This document shows positions 1,308 to 16,613 of a stretch of 35,562 nt of DNA, in pieces. Positions within the stretch are counted from its first letter, which is position 1, and each line of letters opens with the position of its first letter. Below the pieces are notes generated by a model, which saw nothing but the letters and a program-made list of their open reading frames with translations, made no database searches and was not told the DNA's origin. This DNA comes from an uncultured Porphyromonadaceae bacterium (GTDB taxonomy: Bacteria > Bacteroidota > Bacteroidia > Bacteroidales > Muribaculaceae): NCBI GenBank assembly GCA_947176935.1, contig CAMWSP010000003.1, positions 1 to 35,562 of the forward strand, read 5' to 3'. The translations under genes were made by a program, and so were the position numbers.

Positions 1308-2543
1308 TTATACTTTTTTCATAAAGGAGTCTTTGAAGCCGAGGAAGTAGAGAACGCCGTCGAGTCCGATGGTTGACAGGCTCTGTTCGGCCGTGGCCTT
1401 GACTTTCGGCTTGGCATGGAAGGCGATACCGAGGCCTGCGGTTGCGAGCATTGGCAAATCGTTCGCTCCATCACCAACAGCTATGGTCTGCGCAATGTTC
1501 ACGTTTTCGACCTGGGCGAGGAGCCTGAGGAGCTCGGCTTTGCGGCGACCGTCGACTACTTCGCCGACGTAACGCCCTGTCAGATGGCCGGTTGAGTCGA
1601 CTTCAAGTTCGTTGGCATAGACATAGTCGAAACCGAATTTTTGTTTCAGGTAGTTGCCGAAGTATGTGAAGCCGCCCGAGAGAATTGCGGTTTTATAGCC
1701 GGCGCGTTTCAGAACGTCCATCATCCGCTCGAGGCCTTCGGTGAAGGGGAGGTTTTCGGCAATATCTTTCATGACCGAAATGTCGAGGCCCTTGAGCAGG
1801 GCAACGCGCTGGGTGAAGCTTTCGATAAAGTCGATTTCGCCGCGCATTGCGCTTTCGGTTATGGCTTTGACCCGGTCGCCAACACCGGCGCGGATTGCGA
1901 GTTCGTCGATAACTTCGGTTTCAATGAGGGTGGAGTCCATGTCGAAGCAAATCAGGCGGCGGGTGCGGCGGAAAACGTTGTCTTCCTGAAAGGAGATGTC
2001 GACGTCGTTTTTCGACGCGATTTCCAGGAACCGCCGGCTGAGGCCGAGGCGGTCGGCGGGATTGCCGCGGACGGCCATTTCGATGCAGGTTTTGGACTTG
2101 GAGTCGCAGTTGTCGCTTTTGAGCGAGATGCGGCCGGTGAGGCGCTTGATGTTTTCAATGTTGAGCCCTTCGGAGGCTACTTCGGCGGTGAGGCGCGCGA
2201 TATGGTCGGCGGTGAGCCGGCGGCCGAGCATGGTGATGATCCATCGGCTCTTGCCCTGCATGCTGACCCATTTTTCGTAGTCGTCGACCGCAGTTGGGGT
2301 GAAGCGGATGTTCAGGTTCAGCTCGGCGGCTTTGAAGAGCATGTCTTTGAGGATATTGCCGGAGGTTGTGGCGTCGGTCTTGATCAGGATGCCGAGCGAA
2401 AGATAGTGGTGGATGGTGCTCTGGCCGATGTCGAGAATCGAGGCGTTATAGTGGCCGAGAATTCCGGTTAGCGCCGACGTTACGCCGGGGCGGTCAACGC
2501 CGGTTATGTTGATGAGAATCAGTTCTGTTGAATTATCTGTCAT
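1308..2543 (-). CDS. serB: Phosphoserine phosphatase SerB with N-terminal ACT-type region
   Basis: HAD motif CFDMDSTLIETEVIDELA, SGGFTYF, VGDGANDLPML. N-terminal ITGVDRPGVTSALTGIL is ACT-like. Start placed at the internal ATG (MTDNSTEL) at 2543 instead of the ORF-track 2624, because the extension lies inside the upstream gene and has no family similarity. Confidence 0.93.
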   Translation of the reverse strand: MTDNSTELILINITGVDRPGVTSALTGILGHYNASILDIGQSTIHHYLSLGILIKTDATTSGNILKDMLFKAAELNLNIRFTPTAVDDYEKWVSMQGKSRWIITMLGRRLTADHIARLTAEVASEGLNIENIKRLTGRISLKSDNCDSKSKTCIEMAVRGNPADRLGLSRRFLEIASKNDVDISFQEDNVFRRTRRLICFDMDSTLIETEVIDELAIRAGVGDRVKAITESAMRGEIDFIESFTQRVALLKGLDISVMKDIAENLPFTEGLERMMDVLKRAGYKTAILSGGFTYFGNYLKQKFGFDYVYANELEVDSTGHLTGRYVGEVVDGRRKAELLRLLAQVENVNIAQTIAVGDGANDLPMLATAGLGIAFHAKPKVKATAEQSLSTIGLDGVLYFLGFKDSFMKKV

Positions 2544-3336
2544 GGTTATGATAAGCGATGAGTCCGGAAATGGGACGTTCTTGAATCTGCTCGATGGTGA
2601 AGCCGCGCAGGGAGGCGGCGGCAATCAGCTGCGGGGCCAGGGCCTTGGCCACTCCGCCGATAACGGAGAGGCGCTGCGTCAGCTTATAATAGTTGCTCAT
2701 TGCGGCAAACAGGGAGTCAAGTTCTTCGCCGATGAGGTCGCTGAGGTGTTCGGCGTGGTCGAGGATGAAGGGCATCAGCGATGCGAGAAACGCGTTGGCT
2801 GCGGGGCGGCGATAGACGCGCTCGAGAATTTCGGCGTAGGTCATGCCGAGGAATCTTTCGAGTTCGGGGCGCAGCTTACCGGTTCGGTAAACGAGTCGGA
2901 GCAGGCGTTTGCCGAACGAGGCGCCGCTGCCTTCGTCGCCGAGGATGAAGCCGAGCGGGGGCATGTTTGAGGTCAGTTCGCGGCCGTTGTAGAGCGCGGA
3001 GTTGCTGCCGGTGCCGAGAATGAGGGCCAGGCCGGGTTTGGAGCCGAACAGGGCGCGGGCGGCGCCGAGCATGTCGGACGCCACTTCTACGCAGGCGCCG
3101 GCGGGGAAGGCCGAGGCTACTTTGGAGCACACGTCGGGGCTGACGCATCCGGCGCCGTAGTAGAATATTTCGTCGGGCCGGAGCGGGCCCAGGGCGTCGG
3201 CAAATGCCGCGCTGAGCTCGTGGTCGCTGAGCATGAGGGCGTTGATTCCGGGAGTTTCGAAAATGCGCACTGAGCCGTCATCTTCAATGGTGGCCCACTG
3301 CACTTTGGTGCTTCCGGCGTCGGCGATAATCTTCAC
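2533..3336 (-). CDS. BadF/BadG/BcrA/BcrD-type ATPase, N-acetylglucosamine kinase-like
   Basis: MKIIADAGSTKVQWATIEDDG (phosphate-1 motif), LILGTGSNSALYNG, LGFILGDEGSGASFGKRLL, VIGGVA. GTG start at 3336. Overlaps the serB start by 11 nt. Confidence 0.85.
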   Translation of the reverse strand: MKIIADAGSTKVQWATIEDDGSVRIFETPGINALMLSDHELSAAFADALGPLRPDEIFYYGAGCVSPDVCSKVASAFPAGACVEVASDMLGAARALFGSKPGLALILGTGSNSALYNGRELTSNMPPLGFILGDEGSGASFGKRLLRLVYRTGKLRPELERFLGMTYAEILERVYRRPAANAFLASLMPFILDHAEHLSDLIGEELDSLFAAMSNYYKLTQRLSVIGGVAKALAPQLIAAASLRGFTIEQIQERPISGLIAYHNHDR

Positions 3337-3340
3337 GGTT

Positions 3341-6300
3341 TCAGAGAATGGCTTTGGTTGAGGTTACGGTGCCGCCGGCAGCGACTGCTTTTATGAGGAG
3401 AACGCCCTGAAACGCAGCAGGCAGCAGAAGCATGGGGCCGTTGGCCGATGCTATTTCACGGCCCTGGATGTCGTAGGCCACAATGGAGATTGCTCCGGGA
3501 GCGATTACCTTGCCATTACTGACGCGCACGGGGCCGGAGGTCAGTTGGGCGGCTTCGATGGCGCCTTCGTCCTGGCGGGTGTTGGTGTTGGTATAGTTGG
3601 CGTCGTAGGTGAACTCAACGGTGTCGCCGGCTTTGAGGTCGGCCATGTCGATGGTTTTGGTTCCGGTGAGGGTGTTGATGGTAATCAGCGGGGAGTCGAT
3701 TTCGGCGCCGTTGAGGCTGACGTGGAGGTGTTCGATGTCGGAGTTTCCGATTTTGAGTGTGCCGCCCTGGTTGGCCACGAGCTTGGCGGTTGCGATCCGG
3801 CCGTTTTTCCAGGATGCGCCGAAGGTTACGTCGCCGGCGGCTTTCAGGCCGTTGATTTCGCCTTGTTTCCAGGTTGAGGGGAGGGCGGGGAGCATGTAGA
3901 TGCCACCGTTGCGGCTCTGCAGGAGCATTTCGGTAATGCCGGAGCAGGCGCCGAAGTTGCCGTCGATTTGGAAGGGGGAGTGGGAGTCAAACAAGTTGTT
4001 GTAGACGCCGGAGCCGTTGGTGTGGGTGGAGCAGAGGGCGTTGCGCAGAATCTTGCGGGCGTGGTCGCCATCCTGAGCACGGGCCCAGAGGTTGATTTTC
4101 CAGCCCATGGACCAGCCGGTTGCGCCGTCGCCGCGCAGAATCATGGAGTTTACGGCGGGCTGGAACATTGGGTGGCCGGGTTCGACCTGGGAGTAGGGAT
4201 AGAGGCACATCAGGTGGCTCATGTGGCGGTGGCCGTCCTGGCCGGCGTTGTAGGCGCTGTATTTCCATTCGCGCAGAATCGGGGTGCCTTTGGCCAGCGA
4301 GTTGTTGTTCCAAACCTTGGTGTATTCCTCAGAAGCGAGGCCTCGGTCGAGGTTATCGTAGTAGGCTTGGAGTTTGGCTTTGTCGGCAGCGGAGATTCCG
4401 CATGCTTCGAGGCCGAGGGTGTCGATGGCCTTGAGGGTGTTGGAGAAGAGGTCGACGAGAATCTGCTGGGCGTGGGCGGTGGCGTTTTCGGAGCCGGGGC
4501 CGTGTTCGGGCGAGTATTCCTTGGGGGCTTCCCAGGAGCCGTCGGCGCCTTTGACGAGGCGTTCCATCCAGAATTCGCAGGTGCTCCAGATTGTGGGGAA
4601 CGCGCGCTTGAGGAAGTCTTTGTCGAGGGTGTAGTCATAGTGCTGGAACAGGTGGGAGCAGCACCATGCGTTGGCAATGGTGTAGTTGTGCATGAAGGAG
4701 CCGGAGCCGCCGAAAATGTTTGATTCGGTGAAGAATGTCCAGCCTTTGGTCTGGCCGGCGCCTTTGGCGAGTTTCTGCCAGGTGTCGTGTTCGGTGGCCT
4801 GGCTGATGAGGTAGTTGAGCAGCGGCAGGTGGAGTTCGCTGAGGTTGGTTGGCTCGGCGGGCCAGTAGCACATCTGCAGGTTGATGTTGTTGTGGATGTC
4901 GGCGTTCCAGGGGGCGATCTGACCGCCGTAGGGGGCGGCGGCGGTGAATCCGCTCCAGATTCCCTGAAGGTTATTGGGCACGTCGACGCCGCGGCTCGAA
5001 CCTATGTGGAGGTAGCGGCCATAGTGGAAGTAGAGCTGCTCGAGGAAGCGCACGTTGTTGTCGTCGGCGTTGACGTTGCTCTTGGTGGTGTTTTGGTAGT
5101 AGGTGATGAGCTCGTCGGTGGGCTTGTCGTTGACCGAGCCGGTCAGGTCGAAGTCCACGCGGTTGAAAATGGCCTGATAGTCGGCCACATGGTCGGCCAG
5201 GACGGCATCCCAGCCCTTGGCGGCGGCGTTTGCCGCGCAGGCGGCTACGTTGCCGGTCAGTGCGTCGGTGTTGGAGGTGAAGTTTGAGGCGTGGAGGTCA
5301 TAGTCGGTGCCGGCGGCGATAACAACGAAGATCTGGTCGGCGCCTTTGACGGTGATGCCGGTGGCGTCGGCGGTCATGGTTGCGTTAGGACCCGTGGGTA
5401 CGATTTTGATGCAGCTGGCAAAGGAAACGGTTTCAAATTTGCCGCCGTAGGTAATGGTGCCGTCGGCATTGTAGGTGACGGGCGATTTGATGTAGCCGGC
5501 GGCCATGCCGGGCACTTCGGTGAACTTGACGTTAATGGCGCCGGGAGTCGAGGCGGAGAGCAGGGCGGCAACGACGTTGTCGGGGTAGGAGGCGAGGAAG
5601 CGGCGGGTGAATACCGTGCCGGCGGCGTTTTCGTAGCTGACGTTGGAGGTGGCGTCGGTCAGGTCGAGGTTGCGCCAATAGTTTTTAACGCCGTTGTCTT
5701 CCCAGCCGAAGCCTTCTTCTTCGAGCGAGTTGATTTTCAGCGAGCCGAAGTTTTGGTAGCAGCCATAGTTGGAGCCGTTGTCTTCTTTTTTGCCGGTCCA
5801 GAGTGTCTTTTCGTTAACCGAGATGTCTTCCTGCATAACACCGCCGAGAAGCGTTGCGCCGAGCTGGCCGTTGCCGATTGGCAGGCCGAGGTCCATCCAT
5901 TTCTGGGGGTGCGAGCCGATGGAGTAGGTGGCGGTGGTACCGGGGCGGGTGTACCAGAGGCTCAGTTTGTGTTCGGGGCGATAGGTTGTCGAGCCTTCAT
6001 AGGCGTATTCTTCGGCGGGGAGGTCGGCCATGGTCATGAATTGGAGCGCGTTGCCGGTTTCGGTTTCGCCGCCGGTCCAGAAGCCGATTTCCTGATGGGC
6101 GGCGTTGGCGCCTTGCCAGAGGTTGAAGTAGCCGTTGTAGCCGTTAGGTTTGATTTCGAGAGCGGGCCAGTAGGCGGTCGACGGGGTTTCGCGCAGCGAG
6201 AATCCTTTGTCGTAGGGATCGTCCGAGGCATAGAGCCGGGCGTCGTCGCCTGAGCCCTGCGGCTTGAGATATTCACCGTTTTTGTTGACAATCTGGAAGT

Positions 6301-6946
6301 TGGAGGCATTGCCGACAAGTTTCCAGAGCTTGGAGGGAACGGGGTTTACGGATGCTTCGCGTTTAACCTTGTTGCCGACGCCCTGCGAGGTGACAACGGC
6401 CTTGTTGTTGCAGAATTGGATGTAGTACCATTCGGGGTCAGCCTGGTCGGCGGTTGCGAATTCAGGCATTGCCGTGCTGATGAAGTTCAGTTTGTTGTTA
6501 TTGTCGGCCGAATTCCACTCGCCGAGTTCAACGCCGACGCTTGTGCCGCCCCATTGGTTCATGGCTTTGCCGGCGGAGTTGGCGTTGCGGCGGATTTCCC
6601 AGCATTCACCCAGGTCTTTGATGCTCAGCGAAACGGCATCGCTTTCGTTGGACACTGCGGTGAAGCGGTCGCCGGAGAAACCTACGTAGCGGCCGGCGGC
6701 ACTCTTCATCTTGAAGTCGGAGGGTGTGCCGATAAGTTGCCAGCGCAGCGCGTTGGCGCCTCCGGCGTCGGCGGTGATGAGCTTGCCAACGCCGTTATCT
6801 TTCAACACATGGCCACCGGTGGTGAATTTAACCTGATGCCACACCGGCGAGTCGGCCGATGAAAAAGTTGGCTCGTTGGCAGCGGAAACGACCATGGCCG
6901 AAATCAGGCCCATGGCACTGAGCAAAGATTTGAAATTGAATTTCAT
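3341..6946 (-). CDS. Secreted glycoside hydrolase family 95 (alpha-L-fucosidase-like) with N-terminal accessory modules and C-terminal sorting-like domain
   Basis: WMDLGLPIGNGQLGATLLGGVMQEDISVNEKTLWTG, PWNADIHNNINLQMCYWPAEPTNLSE, EYSPEHGPG, SPFQIDGNFGACSGITEMLLQS are GH95 motifs. Signal peptide MKFNFKSLLSAMGLISAMVVSAANE supports start at 6946; the upstream extension to 7003 would overlap the predicted promoter. Confidence 0.92.
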   Translation of the reverse strand: MKFNFKSLLSAMGLISAMVVSAANEPTFSSADSPVWHQVKFTTGGHVLKDNGVGKLITADAGGANALRWQLIGTPSDFKMKSAAGRYVGFSGDRFTAVSNESDAVSLSIKDLGECWEIRRNANSAGKAMNQWGGTSVGVELGEWNSADNNNKLNFISTAMPEFATADQADPEWYYIQFCNNKAVVTSQGVGNKVKREASVNPVPSKLWKLVGNASNFQIVNKNGEYLKPQGSGDDARLYASDDPYDKGFSLRETPSTAYWPALEIKPNGYNGYFNLWQGANAAHQEIGFWTGGETETGNALQFMTMADLPAEEYAYEGSTTYRPEHKLSLWYTRPGTTATYSIGSHPQKWMDLGLPIGNGQLGATLLGGVMQEDISVNEKTLWTGKKEDNGSNYGCYQNFGSLKINSLEEEGFGWEDNGVKNYWRNLDLTDATSNVSYENAAGTVFTRRFLASYPDNVVAALLSASTPGAINVKFTEVPGMAAGYIKSPVTYNADGTITYGGKFETVSFASCIKIVPTGPNATMTADATGITVKGADQIFVVIAAGTDYDLHASNFTSNTDALTGNVAACAANAAAKGWDAVLADHVADYQAIFNRVDFDLTGSVNDKPTDELITYYQNTTKSNVNADDNNVRFLEQLYFHYGRYLHIGSSRGVDVPNNLQGIWSGFTAAAPYGGQIAPWNADIHNNINLQMCYWPAEPTNLSELHLPLLNYLISQATEHDTWQKLAKGAGQTKGWTFFTESNIFGGSGSFMHNYTIANAWCCSHLFQHYDYTLDKDFLKRAFPTIWSTCEFWMERLVKGADGSWEAPKEYSPEHGPGSENATAHAQQILVDLFSNTLKAIDTLGLEACGISAADKAKLQAYYDNLDRGLASEEYTKVWNNNSLAKGTPILREWKYSAYNAGQDGHRHMSHLMCLYPYSQVEPGHPMFQPAVNSMILRGDGATGWSMGWKINLWARAQDGDHARKILRNALCSTHTNGSGVYNNLFDSHSPFQIDGNFGACSGITEMLLQSRNGGIYMLPALPSTWKQGEINGLKAAGDVTFGASWKNGRIATAKLVANQGGTLKIGNSDIEHLHVSLNGAEIDSPLITINTLTGTKTIDMADLKAGDTVEFTYDANYTNTNTRQDEGAIEAAQLTSGPVRVSNGKVIAPGAISIVAYDIQGREIASANGPMLLLPAAFQGVLLIKAVAAGGTVTSTKAIL

Positions 6947-7000
6947 AGAGTGGAAACCGGATATTTTTAATGGTTTAGGGTAATCAGATATTTGAGAATG

Positions 7001-7031
7001 CAAAGATAGTTAAAAAATCCTTTAGCGCAAA
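7001..7031 (-). promoter_or_regulatory. Predicted Bacteroidetes-type sigma promoter for the GH95 gene
   Basis: Minus strand TTTG (7031-7028) - 19 nt - TATCTTTG (7008-7001), matching the TTTG / TAnnTTTG consensus. Confidence 0.7.
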
Positions 7032-7093
7032 ACTTTTGCCGAGTTAATCTTGTTCTAAAGGCAAAACAACAAACGATAAACAAACTAAGTGAT

Positions 7094-7669
7094 ATGAAAT
7101 ACATCCAGCCGGAACTTCCCTATGATGCCGCCGCACTTGCTCCTGCAATCAGCGAGGAAACTGTCAGATTTCACTATGGCAAGCATGAGAAAACGTATAT
7201 CGACAATCTCAACGCTATGATTAAAGATACGCGTTTCGAAAATCTCAGCCTTGAGGAAATCATTACTGAAAGCGATGGCTCTTTGTTTAATAACGCCTCG
7301 CAGGCGTGGAACCATATTTTCTACTTCTTTTCGCTCAGCCCCGACGGGGGAGGCGAGCCCGGAGGCGATCTGCGCAAGGCAATCGACCGAGATTTCGGCT
7401 CGTTTGAAAAGTTTAAGGAAGATTTCGTAAAGGCCGGAACTTCGCTCTTTGGCAGCGGTTGGGTCTGGCTGGCGGCCGACACTGAGGGCAAGCTCTTTAT
7501 CCAGGCTACCTCAAACGCCGGCAACCCGATGACTACCGGGCTGATTCCCCTGCTGACATTCGATGTCTGGGAACACGCCTATTATCTGGACTATCAGAAC
7601 CGGCGCGCCGATGCCCTGAATGCTCTCTGGAGCATTGTTGACTGGGACGTTGTTGAAAGCCGCTACTGA
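7094..7669 (+). CDS. sodB: Superoxide dismutase (Fe/Mn family)
   Basis: FHYGKHEKTYIDNLN, NNASQAWNHIFYF, GSGWVWL, and metal-ligand motif DVWEHAYYLDYQNRR. Confidence 0.96.
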   Translation: MKYIQPELPYDAAALAPAISEETVRFHYGKHEKTYIDNLNAMIKDTRFENLSLEEIITESDGSLFNNASQAWNHIFYFFSLSPDGGGEPGGDLRKAIDRDFGSFEKFKEDFVKAGTSLFGSGWVWLAADTEGKLFIQATSNAGNPMTTGLIPLLTFDVWEHAYYLDYQNRRADALNALWSIVDWDVVESRY

Positions 7670-15577: not shown

Positions 15578-15793
15578 TCAGCCATTTATAAGGTATTCAT
15601 CAACTATGGCCGGATCGCCGAGCATTGACAATAAGGAGCCCGGCCGGCGGAAATCAGCGTATGTTTGGCTTCTTATGAATCTGGTGAATGCTTCGTAGGT
15701 CGGTATATTCAGGGTTTTGGCCAAACGGCACACTATGGTTCCAGTCTGGCTGGCCGTAAGAATCCGGTGCAAAATTTTTTCTCGTTCACTCAT
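15578..15793 (-). CDS. Small helical protein, third gene of DUF3990 cassette (DUF3791-related by appearance)
   Basis: 71 aa MSEREKILHRILTASQTGTIVCRLAKTLNIPTYEAFTRFIRSQTYADFRRPGSLLSMLGDPAIVDEYLING; overlaps the DUF3990 gene by 8 nt (ATGAGTGA), which supports real translation. The pattern LAKxLNIxxYEAFxxFxxSxTY recalls small proteins found beside DUF3990 genes. Confidence 0.7.
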   Translation of the reverse strand: MSEREKILHRILTASQTGTIVCRLAKTLNIPTYEAFTRFIRSQTYADFRRPGSLLSMLGDPAIVDEYLING

Positions 15794-16298
15794 CGGGGCT
15801 TATGTTTTTGCAATCAATGAATTCCAAATATTTATCCACTATTTCCTGATTAAGAAGGCAAATCTGGTTTGTGGGCTTAAAGTACTTTAACCTTTTCAGA
15901 GCGTCTTCGGCGGAAATAAATCCTGTCATAAAGAGTCGGACCGTGTCAATGACCCGATCATCGGCCACGCCACCTTCAATATAGTCCAATCCCTGCCAGG
16001 GTTTTTCGCCGAGCCTGCTTAGGGTTACGAACTCAAGCCATTCCCGATCATATTGCTGAAAGATTCTGGAAGTGCAATTTTTCAGCAATTCGCGCTGCTT
16101 AAGATGATAGATGTTTACGCATGGTGCTTCGCGCCGGTTTGCCGAAATGTTGTTTGCCCAATCTTTAGCCTGGCTATAAATGGCGGTAACGTAGAATCCA
16201 GGACCGAAATCGAGATTCAATCTGCCGTAGTCAACCTTCGGAGAGGGAATAATATCGGTGCCACCATGGTAAACAGTCAGCACATCGTAGAGTTCCAT
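15786..16298 (-). CDS. DUF3990 domain protein (ADP-ribosyltransferase-like fold predicted)
   Basis: VYHGGTDIIPSPKVDYGRLNLDFGPGFYVTAIYSQAKDWA, REWLEFVTLSR, IEGGVADDRVIDTVRLFMTGFISAEDALKRLKYFKPTNQICLLNQEIVDKYLEFI follow the DUF3990 pattern (YHGs..., DFGkGFYlT, G.VADD, TNQ). Confidence 0.8.
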   Translation of the reverse strand: MELYDVLTVYHGGTDIIPSPKVDYGRLNLDFGPGFYVTAIYSQAKDWANNISANRREAPCVNIYHLKQRELLKNCTSRIFQQYDREWLEFVTLSRLGEKPWQGLDYIEGGVADDRVIDTVRLFMTGFISAEDALKRLKYFKPTNQICLLNQEIVDKYLEFIDCKNISPDE

Positions 16299-16314
16299 AT
16301 TTGTGGAGAGGCTT

Positions 16315-16569
16315 TTAGTGGTTGTTGAGGTATTCTCTGAGATATTCGAGGATTGTTTCCATGCTCTGAGTATGGAGGGTGTCGTAGTGTTTGAGGATGT
16401 ATCCCTCGGTCATATCCGCCGCTTCCATTTTGTCGAGCATTGTCAGGTAATCGCACTGTTCTGCTTCGGCCAATGCTTCGACGCATTGAGAAAGAAAGCC
16501 GAATTTGACTTCCTCTTCAGATAGCCTGATATATTTTTCGTTGGTGTTGGGGTCTACAATCTCTTTCAT
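16315..16569 (-). CDS. DUF3791 domain small protein, first gene of DUF3990 cassette
   Basis: 84 aa ending KFGFLSQCVEALAEAEQCDYLTMLDKMEAADMTEGYILKHYDTLHTQSMETILEYLREYLNNH; the YDxLHTQxxExI motif is typical of DUF3791. 16-nt gap to the DUF3990 gene. Confidence 0.78.
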   Translation of the reverse strand: MKEIVDPNTNEKYIRLSEEEVKFGFLSQCVEALAEAEQCDYLTMLDKMEAADMTEGYILKHYDTLHTQSMETILEYLREYLNNH

Positions 16570-16579
16570 AACTAAAACG

Positions 16580-16613
16580 AATCAGGCGCAGGCACGACGG
16601 CCTGCGCCTGATT
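16580..16613 (-). terminator. Perfect 13-bp hairpin after ppdK, probable intrinsic terminator
   Basis: AATCAGGCGCAGG (16580-16592) / CCTGCGCCTGATT (16601-16613), 8-nt loop, followed on the minus strand by CGTTTTAG. Confidence 0.75.

What the first reader, a model, noticed from the sequence alone, without database searches (positions are those of the whole stretch)
15578..16569. Three-gene DUF3791-DUF3990-small-protein cassette: candidate ADP-ribosylation toxin-antitoxin or defence module
Sequence: three small minus-strand ORFs (84, 170, 71 aa) are packed with a 16-nt gap and then an 8-nt overlap, inserted between housekeeping ppdK and a GH20 gene. Family knowledge: the middle protein has the DUF3990 pattern (VYHGG...DFGPGFYVT...EWLEFV...GVADD), which is compatible with an H-Y-E ADP-ribosyltransferase core; the first carries the DUF3791 YDxLHTQ motif. 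Inference: a putative ART effector flanked by two small helical partners, with translational coupling fixing stoichiometry, looks like a tripartite toxin-antitoxin or anti-phage unit. I know of no experimental characterisation.
Basis: partly seen in the sequence, partly recalled or inferred. Interest (0 to 1): 0.72.

Follow-up and report, generated by a model that had tools for sequence, protein, structure and literature searches.

The report
ART toxin between two sister antitoxins
Three small genes in a gut bacterium look like a self-poisoning module, a toxin enzyme predicted to attach ADP-ribose flanked by two related small proteins that probably hold it in check; databases already list it as an untested phage-defence candidate, and here many relatives have lost the toxin yet kept both small genes, as expected of antitoxins.

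Summary
In detail: DUF3791 (84 aa), DUF3990 (170 aa) and a 71-aa gene sit in one packed minus-strand cassette between ppdK and a GH20 gene. It is not a new system. PADLOC already lists it as the untested phage-defence candidate PDC-M13, and the DUF3990 conservation pattern matches the published Tox-ART-HYD2 toxin clade. The AlphaFold model (pLDDT 93.5) finds ADP-ribosyltransferase (ART) toxins ParT and MbcT first in the PDB, at modest scores.

What I add is evidence for toxin-antitoxin logic. Essentially every full-length DUF3990 gene in about 140 non-phage loci has both small partners, apart from four divergent loci and one sequence gap. The partners are homologous (hhalign P=93%, shuffles at most 2%; some third genes match DUF3791 in Pfam). 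Natural fusions join them to each other, to an XRE-type helix-turn-helix, or to the toxin. In 23 of 140 informative loci the toxin is deleted or broken while both partners survive, with at least 12 independent losses and no clear converse case. Best reading: an ART toxin held by a two-part DUF3791-family antitoxin. Toxicity, target, trigger and defence remain untested.

The parts
16315..16569 (-). Gene 1: DUF3791 (84 aa), predicted antitoxin subunit; relatives can carry an N-terminal XRE-type helix-turn-helix
   Evidence: PF12668 E=1.5e-10; PADLOC PDC-M13A E=7.6e-11; AlphaFold model pLDDT 94.8, no PDB fold match; HTH_3 fusions in L002, L017, L248
15786..16298 (-). Gene 2: DUF3990 (170 aa), predicted ADP-ribosyltransferase toxin; His11, Asp30, Tyr36, Trp87, Arg95, Asp105, Asp114 and Gln145 conserved
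   Evidence: PF13151 E=6.7e-40; PADLOC PDC-M13B E=3e-45; AlphaFold pLDDT 93.5 pTM 0.86; best PDB matches ParT and MbcT; conservation over 118 sequences
15578..15793 (-). Gene 3: 71-aa small helical protein, a divergent DUF3791 paralogue; predicted second antitoxin subunit
   Evidence: Profile-profile match to gene 1, P=93% against at most 2% in 20 shuffles; 3 of 23 family members match PF12668 and L195 gene 3 passes the Pfam cut-off; present in nearly all loci
16580..16613 (-). Perfect 14-bp hairpin followed by CGTTTTAGTT, probably the ppdK terminator; ends 10 nt before the gene 1 start codon
   Evidence: Terminator scan; RNA fold z = -7.3

Best explanation
The cassette is a chromosomal toxin-antitoxin module (PADLOC PDC-M13). 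DUF3990 is an ART-fold toxin of the Tox-ART-HYD2 type that uses NAD+ to modify or deplete something in its own cell. The two flanking proteins are both DUF3791-family and act together, probably as a heterodimer on the toxin, as its antitoxin; in some relatives the upstream one also carries a DNA-binding domain and so probably autoregulates the operon. Packing couples synthesis of all three. A trigger such as phage infection or loss of the carrier element would free the toxin. Shown here: gene order, partner dependence, paralogy of the partners, fusions, ART-like fold, conserved residues, repeated selective loss of the toxin. Inferred: enzymatic activity, toxicity, direct neutralisation, heterodimer. 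Unknown: target and trigger.
For: ART-like fold with ParT, MbcT, exotoxin A domain III and tankyrases as the top sensible PDB matches and ART-PolyVal phage proteins among the viral matches. The invariant residues match the published HYD2 motif H, D, GFY, W, R and its H/strand 1, Y/strand 2, D/strand 5 arrangement (strands). The toxin essentially never occurs without both partners in about 140 non-phage loci. The partners are homologous. They are fused to each other on plasmid pBF9343, gene 3 is fused to the toxin in L084, and an XRE-type HTH is fused to DUF3791 in L002, L017 and L248. The toxin is deleted or broken with both partners intact in 23 of 140 informative DUF3791 loci, with at least 12 independent losses; p about 3e-7 against a length-proportional expectation; partners in these pairs show dN/dS 0.01-0.09, like intact controls. 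DUF3990 is also the C-terminal domain of a Serratia Rhs effector protein (PMC4524185). Plasmid and restriction-modification contexts are typical of toxin-antitoxin and defence cargo.
Against: No experiment on any DUF3990-DUF3791 module was found in the held library. The best PDB E-value is only 0.024 and no fold hit passes 0.001. The predicted chemistry could be NAD+ hydrolysis or nucleic-acid modification instead. Most loci come from metagenome assemblies, so some of the ten frameshifted toxins may be assembly errors (the deletions are not). Timing of toxin loss is not resolved, so low dN/dS may predate it. No complex of toxin and partners was modelled.
Confidence: 0.78

Rival explanations
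1. It is primarily an anti-phage abortive-infection system: the same toxin and holding proteins, but with one partner acting as a phage sensor and phage infection as the normal trigger.
For: Catalogued as PDC-M13; PDCs were found by embedding in known defence systems (PMC10855318); here a cassette lies between hsdM and hsdS on a Moraxella plasmid. PDC-M13 is reported 3,324 times in rumen genomes (PMC13356809). ARTs can act in a three-gene defence module (CmdTAC, PMC11618068).
Against: Flanking genes are mostly housekeeping, with only scattered defence families (no control). No phage assay exists. Two other PDC systems showed no activity when tested in a native host (PMC12409345).
Confidence: 0.4
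2. It is mainly a selfish stabilisation module (plasmid addiction and chromosomal anti-addiction): solitary partner pairs persist because they protect the cell against incoming copies of the same toxin.
For: 69 plasmids carry it, 28 of them conjugative, including pBF9343, where it precedes a zeta-toxin gene; one lies near parA and rep genes. Toxin-less partner pairs are recurrent.
Against: Most copies seen are chromosomal and scattered. The same facts fit a general toxin-antitoxin module, and no stability assay exists.
Confidence: 0.3
3. The toxin is an enzyme with a regulatory rather than toxic role, and the small proteins are obligate chaperones or cofactors.
For: The tight three-gene packing fits a stoichiometric complex; no toxicity data exist.
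Against: The small genes repeatedly survive loss of the enzyme, which a dedicated cofactor or chaperone should not do; related domains are predicted toxins in polymorphic toxin systems.
Confidence: 0.1

Closest known systems
PDC-M13 (PADLOC-DB 2.0.0 phage-defence candidate)
   Same: Same three protein families in the same kind of three-gene unit; the PADLOC models match genes 1 and 2 strongly and the gene 3 family in most members
   Different: Nothing in kind; the window's own gene 3 matches only weakly (E=0.0027). PADLOC gives no mechanism; the paralogy of genes 1 and 3 and the selective toxin loss are observations made here
Tox-ART-HYD2 clade of polymorphic toxins and polyvalent phage/plasmid proteins (PMC3482391, PMC5512222)
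   Same: ART fold, conserved H, D, GFY, W, R pattern, H-Y-D arrangement; the authors mention a toxin-antitoxin class with this domain
   Different: Here a free-standing small cytoplasmic protein with two DUF3791-family partners; whether the authors meant this exact operon could not be checked (their 2015 review is not held)
RES-Xre toxin-antitoxin systems (ParT-ParS, MbcT-MbcA)
   Same: Small ART-fold toxin, best structural match; antitoxin family that can carry an Xre-type HTH
   Different: Different toxin family and catalytic pattern (H-Y-D with invariant Gln, not R-E-S); antitoxin is DUF3791 plus a paralogue, not DUF2384; three genes instead of two
CmdTAC (tripartite ART defence system, PMC11618068)
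   Same: Three-gene module with an ART toxin
   Different: CmdTAC has an antitoxin and a chaperone (general knowledge; only the abstract was listed); here both partners are homologous DUF3791-family proteins

Membership tests
PDC-M13 | First-gene, second-gene and third-gene models all matched in one operon | tested here: met
   Gene 1 PDLC04434 7.6e-11, gene 2 PDLC04438 3e-45; gene 3 weak alone (0.0027) but 18 of 23 relatives match M13C models
PDC-M13 | Protects against phage | not testable with these tools
   No published assay found
ADP-ribosyltransferase fold (Tox-ART-HYD2) | ART-like fold | tested here: met
   AlphaFold pLDDT 93.5; top PDB matches are ART toxins, prob 0.89 but E=0.024; Pfam places DUF3990 in the ART clan (PMC7955679)
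ADP-ribosyltransferase fold (Tox-ART-HYD2) | Conserved H (strand 1), Y (strand 2), D (strand 5) with D, GFY, W, R | tested here: met
   H11 99%, D30 100%, G34-F35-Y36 99%, W87 100%, R95 100%, D105 99% of 118 sequences; strands
   E86 58%, E89 22%
Type II toxin-antitoxin system | Toxin not found without its antitoxin, while antitoxins can be solitary | tested here: met
   Partners with essentially all full-length toxins in about 140 loci; 23 loci with partners and no working toxin
Type II toxin-antitoxin system | Toxin inhibits growth and antitoxin neutralises it by binding | not testable with these tools
   Needs expression and pull-down experiments
RES-Xre toxin-antitoxin | RES toxin domain with DUF2384 antitoxin | tested here: not met
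   Only DUF3990 and DUF3791 match in Pfam; similarity is of fold only

The most novel reading that the evidence does not exclude
A tripartite toxin-antitoxin design in which one ART toxin is neutralised by a heterodimer of two diverged copies of the same antitoxin family (DUF3791), made on either side of the toxin in one packed operon. The DUF3791 fold has no counterpart in the PDB by Foldseek, and toxin-less partner pairs persist as stand-alone protection modules.
Probability: 0.45. Interest if true: 0.68.

Novelty: new member of a known kind. Interest (0 to 1): 0.5.

Why it matters
PDC-M13 is reported thousands of times in rumen genomes and sits on conjugative Bacteroides plasmids, including pBF9343 of a genetically tractable strain, yet no function has been shown. 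The comparative evidence here turns a list of domains of unknown function into a specific, testable model: which gene is the toxin, which residues should matter, and that the two small genes act as one antitoxin. It also assigns a likely role to DUF3791 and identifies its hidden third-gene branch.

Tried and rejected
Single-sequence searches of the genome and viral collections with the window protein found nothing; an alignment was needed. DNA-level search of phages: no match. PDB sequence searches for all three families: nothing significant (the A3 hits are short stretches of designed repeat proteins). Foldseek with DUF3791: no match. H-Y-E triad with Glu86 or Glu89: rejected by conservation. 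Chance similarity between genes 1 and 3: rejected by shuffled and reversed controls. Toxin-less loci as a separate lineage: rejected, because the losses are scattered on the partner tree. A toxin plus gene 3 fusion model (L084) was dropped because the alignment misplaced the gene 3 rows. Defence-island enrichment of flanking genes was inconclusive, having no control. The ppdK-GH20 site: other relatives have different DNA downstream of ppdK, so no clean empty site was obtained.

Full report
WHAT IS THERE. Pfam confirms the first two. PADLOC-DB 2.0.0 matches all three to models of one phage-defence candidate, PDC-M13, the third only weakly; most relatives of the third gene match M13C and M13B models. 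PADLOC's letters appear to denote gene position, since both gene orders are covered; that is my inference.

IT IS A CONSERVED UNIT. The window's own 2.0-Mb assembly carries five DUF3990 genes and five DUF3791 genes; the other four toxins are only 25-38% identical to the window's. All 24 full-length loci from this genome and relatives have the same order, mostly with 4-nt ATGA overlaps. The 80 genome-collection loci (Bacteroidota, plus records labelled Clostridium, Clostridioides, Fibrobacter and Verrucomicrobia) have an upstream DUF3791 and a downstream gene 3, fused to the toxin in L084. Four phage-contig loci (L115-L118) and a Moraxella plasmid carry the permuted order toxin, gene 3, DUF3791. 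Three divergent toxins on large phage contigs (L126-L128) have no recognisable partners. L027, from another genus, has an orthologous cassette (59-76% identical) also downstream of ppdK.

THE TOXIN. AlphaFold gives a confident model (pLDDT 93.5, pTM 0.86). Foldseek's best PDB matches are ParT and MbcT, ART-fold toxins of toxin-antitoxin systems, then exotoxin A domain III and tankyrases. The E-values are modest (best 0.024), so this is agreement of a set rather than one strong hit. Among viral models, ART-PolyVal proteins rank high. This matches the published Tox-ART-HYD2 signature H, D, GFY, W, R (PMC3482391) and the H-Y-D arrangement over strands 1, 2 and 5 (PMC5512222); Asp105 directly precedes the fifth strand of the model. 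Gln145, invariant in a late strand of the sheet, is unexplained. DUF3990 lies in Pfam's ART clan (PMC7955679) and forms the C-terminal domain of a Serratia Rhs effector protein (PMC4524185).

THE PARTNERS ARE SISTERS. Profiles of gene 1 and gene 3 align over most of their length with probability 93% and E about 3e-7, against at most 2% in 20 column shuffles and 0.2% reversed. Independently, three of 23 gene 3 proteins match DUF3791 in Pfam (best 1e-10), one on a Parabacteroides plasmid passes the Pfam cut-off and is annotated so by NCBI, and the fused gene 3 domain of L084 matches weakly. Fusions tie the parts together: gene 3 plus DUF3791 in one 149-aa protein on B. fragilis pBF9343; probably DUF3791 plus gene 3 downstream of the toxin in L217 (weak scores); toxin plus gene 3 in L084; and an HTH_3 domain on DUF3791 in L002, L017 and L248. 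The DUF3791 model is confident (pLDDT 94.8) and finds no PDB fold.

THE TOXIN IS LOST, THE PARTNERS STAY. In a survey of 247 genomes of the same family, 150 DUF3791 matches were listed. After setting ten contig-edge cases aside, 105 have an intact toxin next to them and 35 do not. Of the 35, 13 have the toxin deleted (wholly or mostly) with both partners kept, 10 have a broken toxin with both partners kept, 4 keep only an N-terminal toxin piece and lack gene 3, 6 have DUF3791 alone, and 2 have a damaged DUF3791. Several deletions leave toxin remnants (L163, L181, L184, L186); L180 joins the partners at the ATGA overlap. Counting two loci outside that sample, 15 toxin-less pairs need at least 12 independent changes on the partner tree, close to random scatter. 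In the converse direction, among about 140 loci fetched because they hold a full-length toxin, no clear case of partner loss was found: L217 has a fused partner, L219 has a sequence gap, L221 has one in-frame stop in DUF3791, and L248-L251 have a divergent third gene. If single-gene damage fell in proportion to length, 23 of 23 hits on the toxin would have p about 3e-7 (13 of 13 deletions, 2e-4); the two samples are not identical, so this is a guide. Where synonymous change is not saturated, partners from toxin-less loci show dN/dS 0.01-0.09 against intact relatives, the same as intact pairs, though the timing of loss is unresolved.

WHERE IT TRAVELS. 69 PLSDB plasmids carry a relative, 28 typed conjugative. 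On pBF9343 it is followed by a small gene and a zeta-toxin gene. On the Moraxella plasmid it sits between hsdM and hsdS. In genomes most immediate neighbours are housekeeping genes, with scattered defence families.

MECHANISM AND CONFIDENCE. The simplest model is an ART toxin neutralised by a two-part DUF3791-family antitoxin, co-produced from one packed transcript and autoregulated in HTH-bearing forms. In the window the ppdK terminator hairpin ends 10 nt before the gene 1 start, leaving little room for a promoter after it, so expression by read-through or from a promoter inside that region is possible. Whether the module's benefit is phage defence, stabilisation of mobile DNA or both cannot be settled here. 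I put toxin-antitoxin at 0.78.

Noticed in passing
window 16580-16613 (-): A perfect 14-bp terminator-like hairpin after ppdK ends 10 nt before the DUF3791 start codon, so the cassette has little or no space for a promoter after the terminator.
   Followed up: partly
L193 (pBF9343) 6502-7615: After the toxin on this conjugative Bacteroides plasmid come an 86-aa gene and an overlapping zeta-toxin gene, possibly a second module stacked on the first.
   Followed up: partly
L194 (NZ_CP069435.1) 1457-5206: The permuted cassette lies inside a type I restriction-modification operon, between hsdM and hsdS, with overlapping genes throughout.
   Followed up: partly
L033, L106, L120-L123: Tandem cassettes or extra gene 3 copies follow one toxin.
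   Followed up: no
G191 and G199: Two related genomes carry 9 and 11 DUF3791 loci, many without an intact toxin.
   Followed up: partly
L126-L128: Divergent DUF3990 genes on large phage contigs have no recognisable partners and may be phage effectors.
   Followed up: partly
G001:C12 (L023) and G027:C8 (L022): Sub-threshold DUF3990 matches in longer proteins (about 208 and 366 aa) that resemble other ART-like proteins.
   Followed up: no
window 15786-16298, residue Gln145 of DUF3990: A glutamine in a late strand is invariant in all 118 sequences but is not part of the published HYD2 signature.
   Followed up: partly
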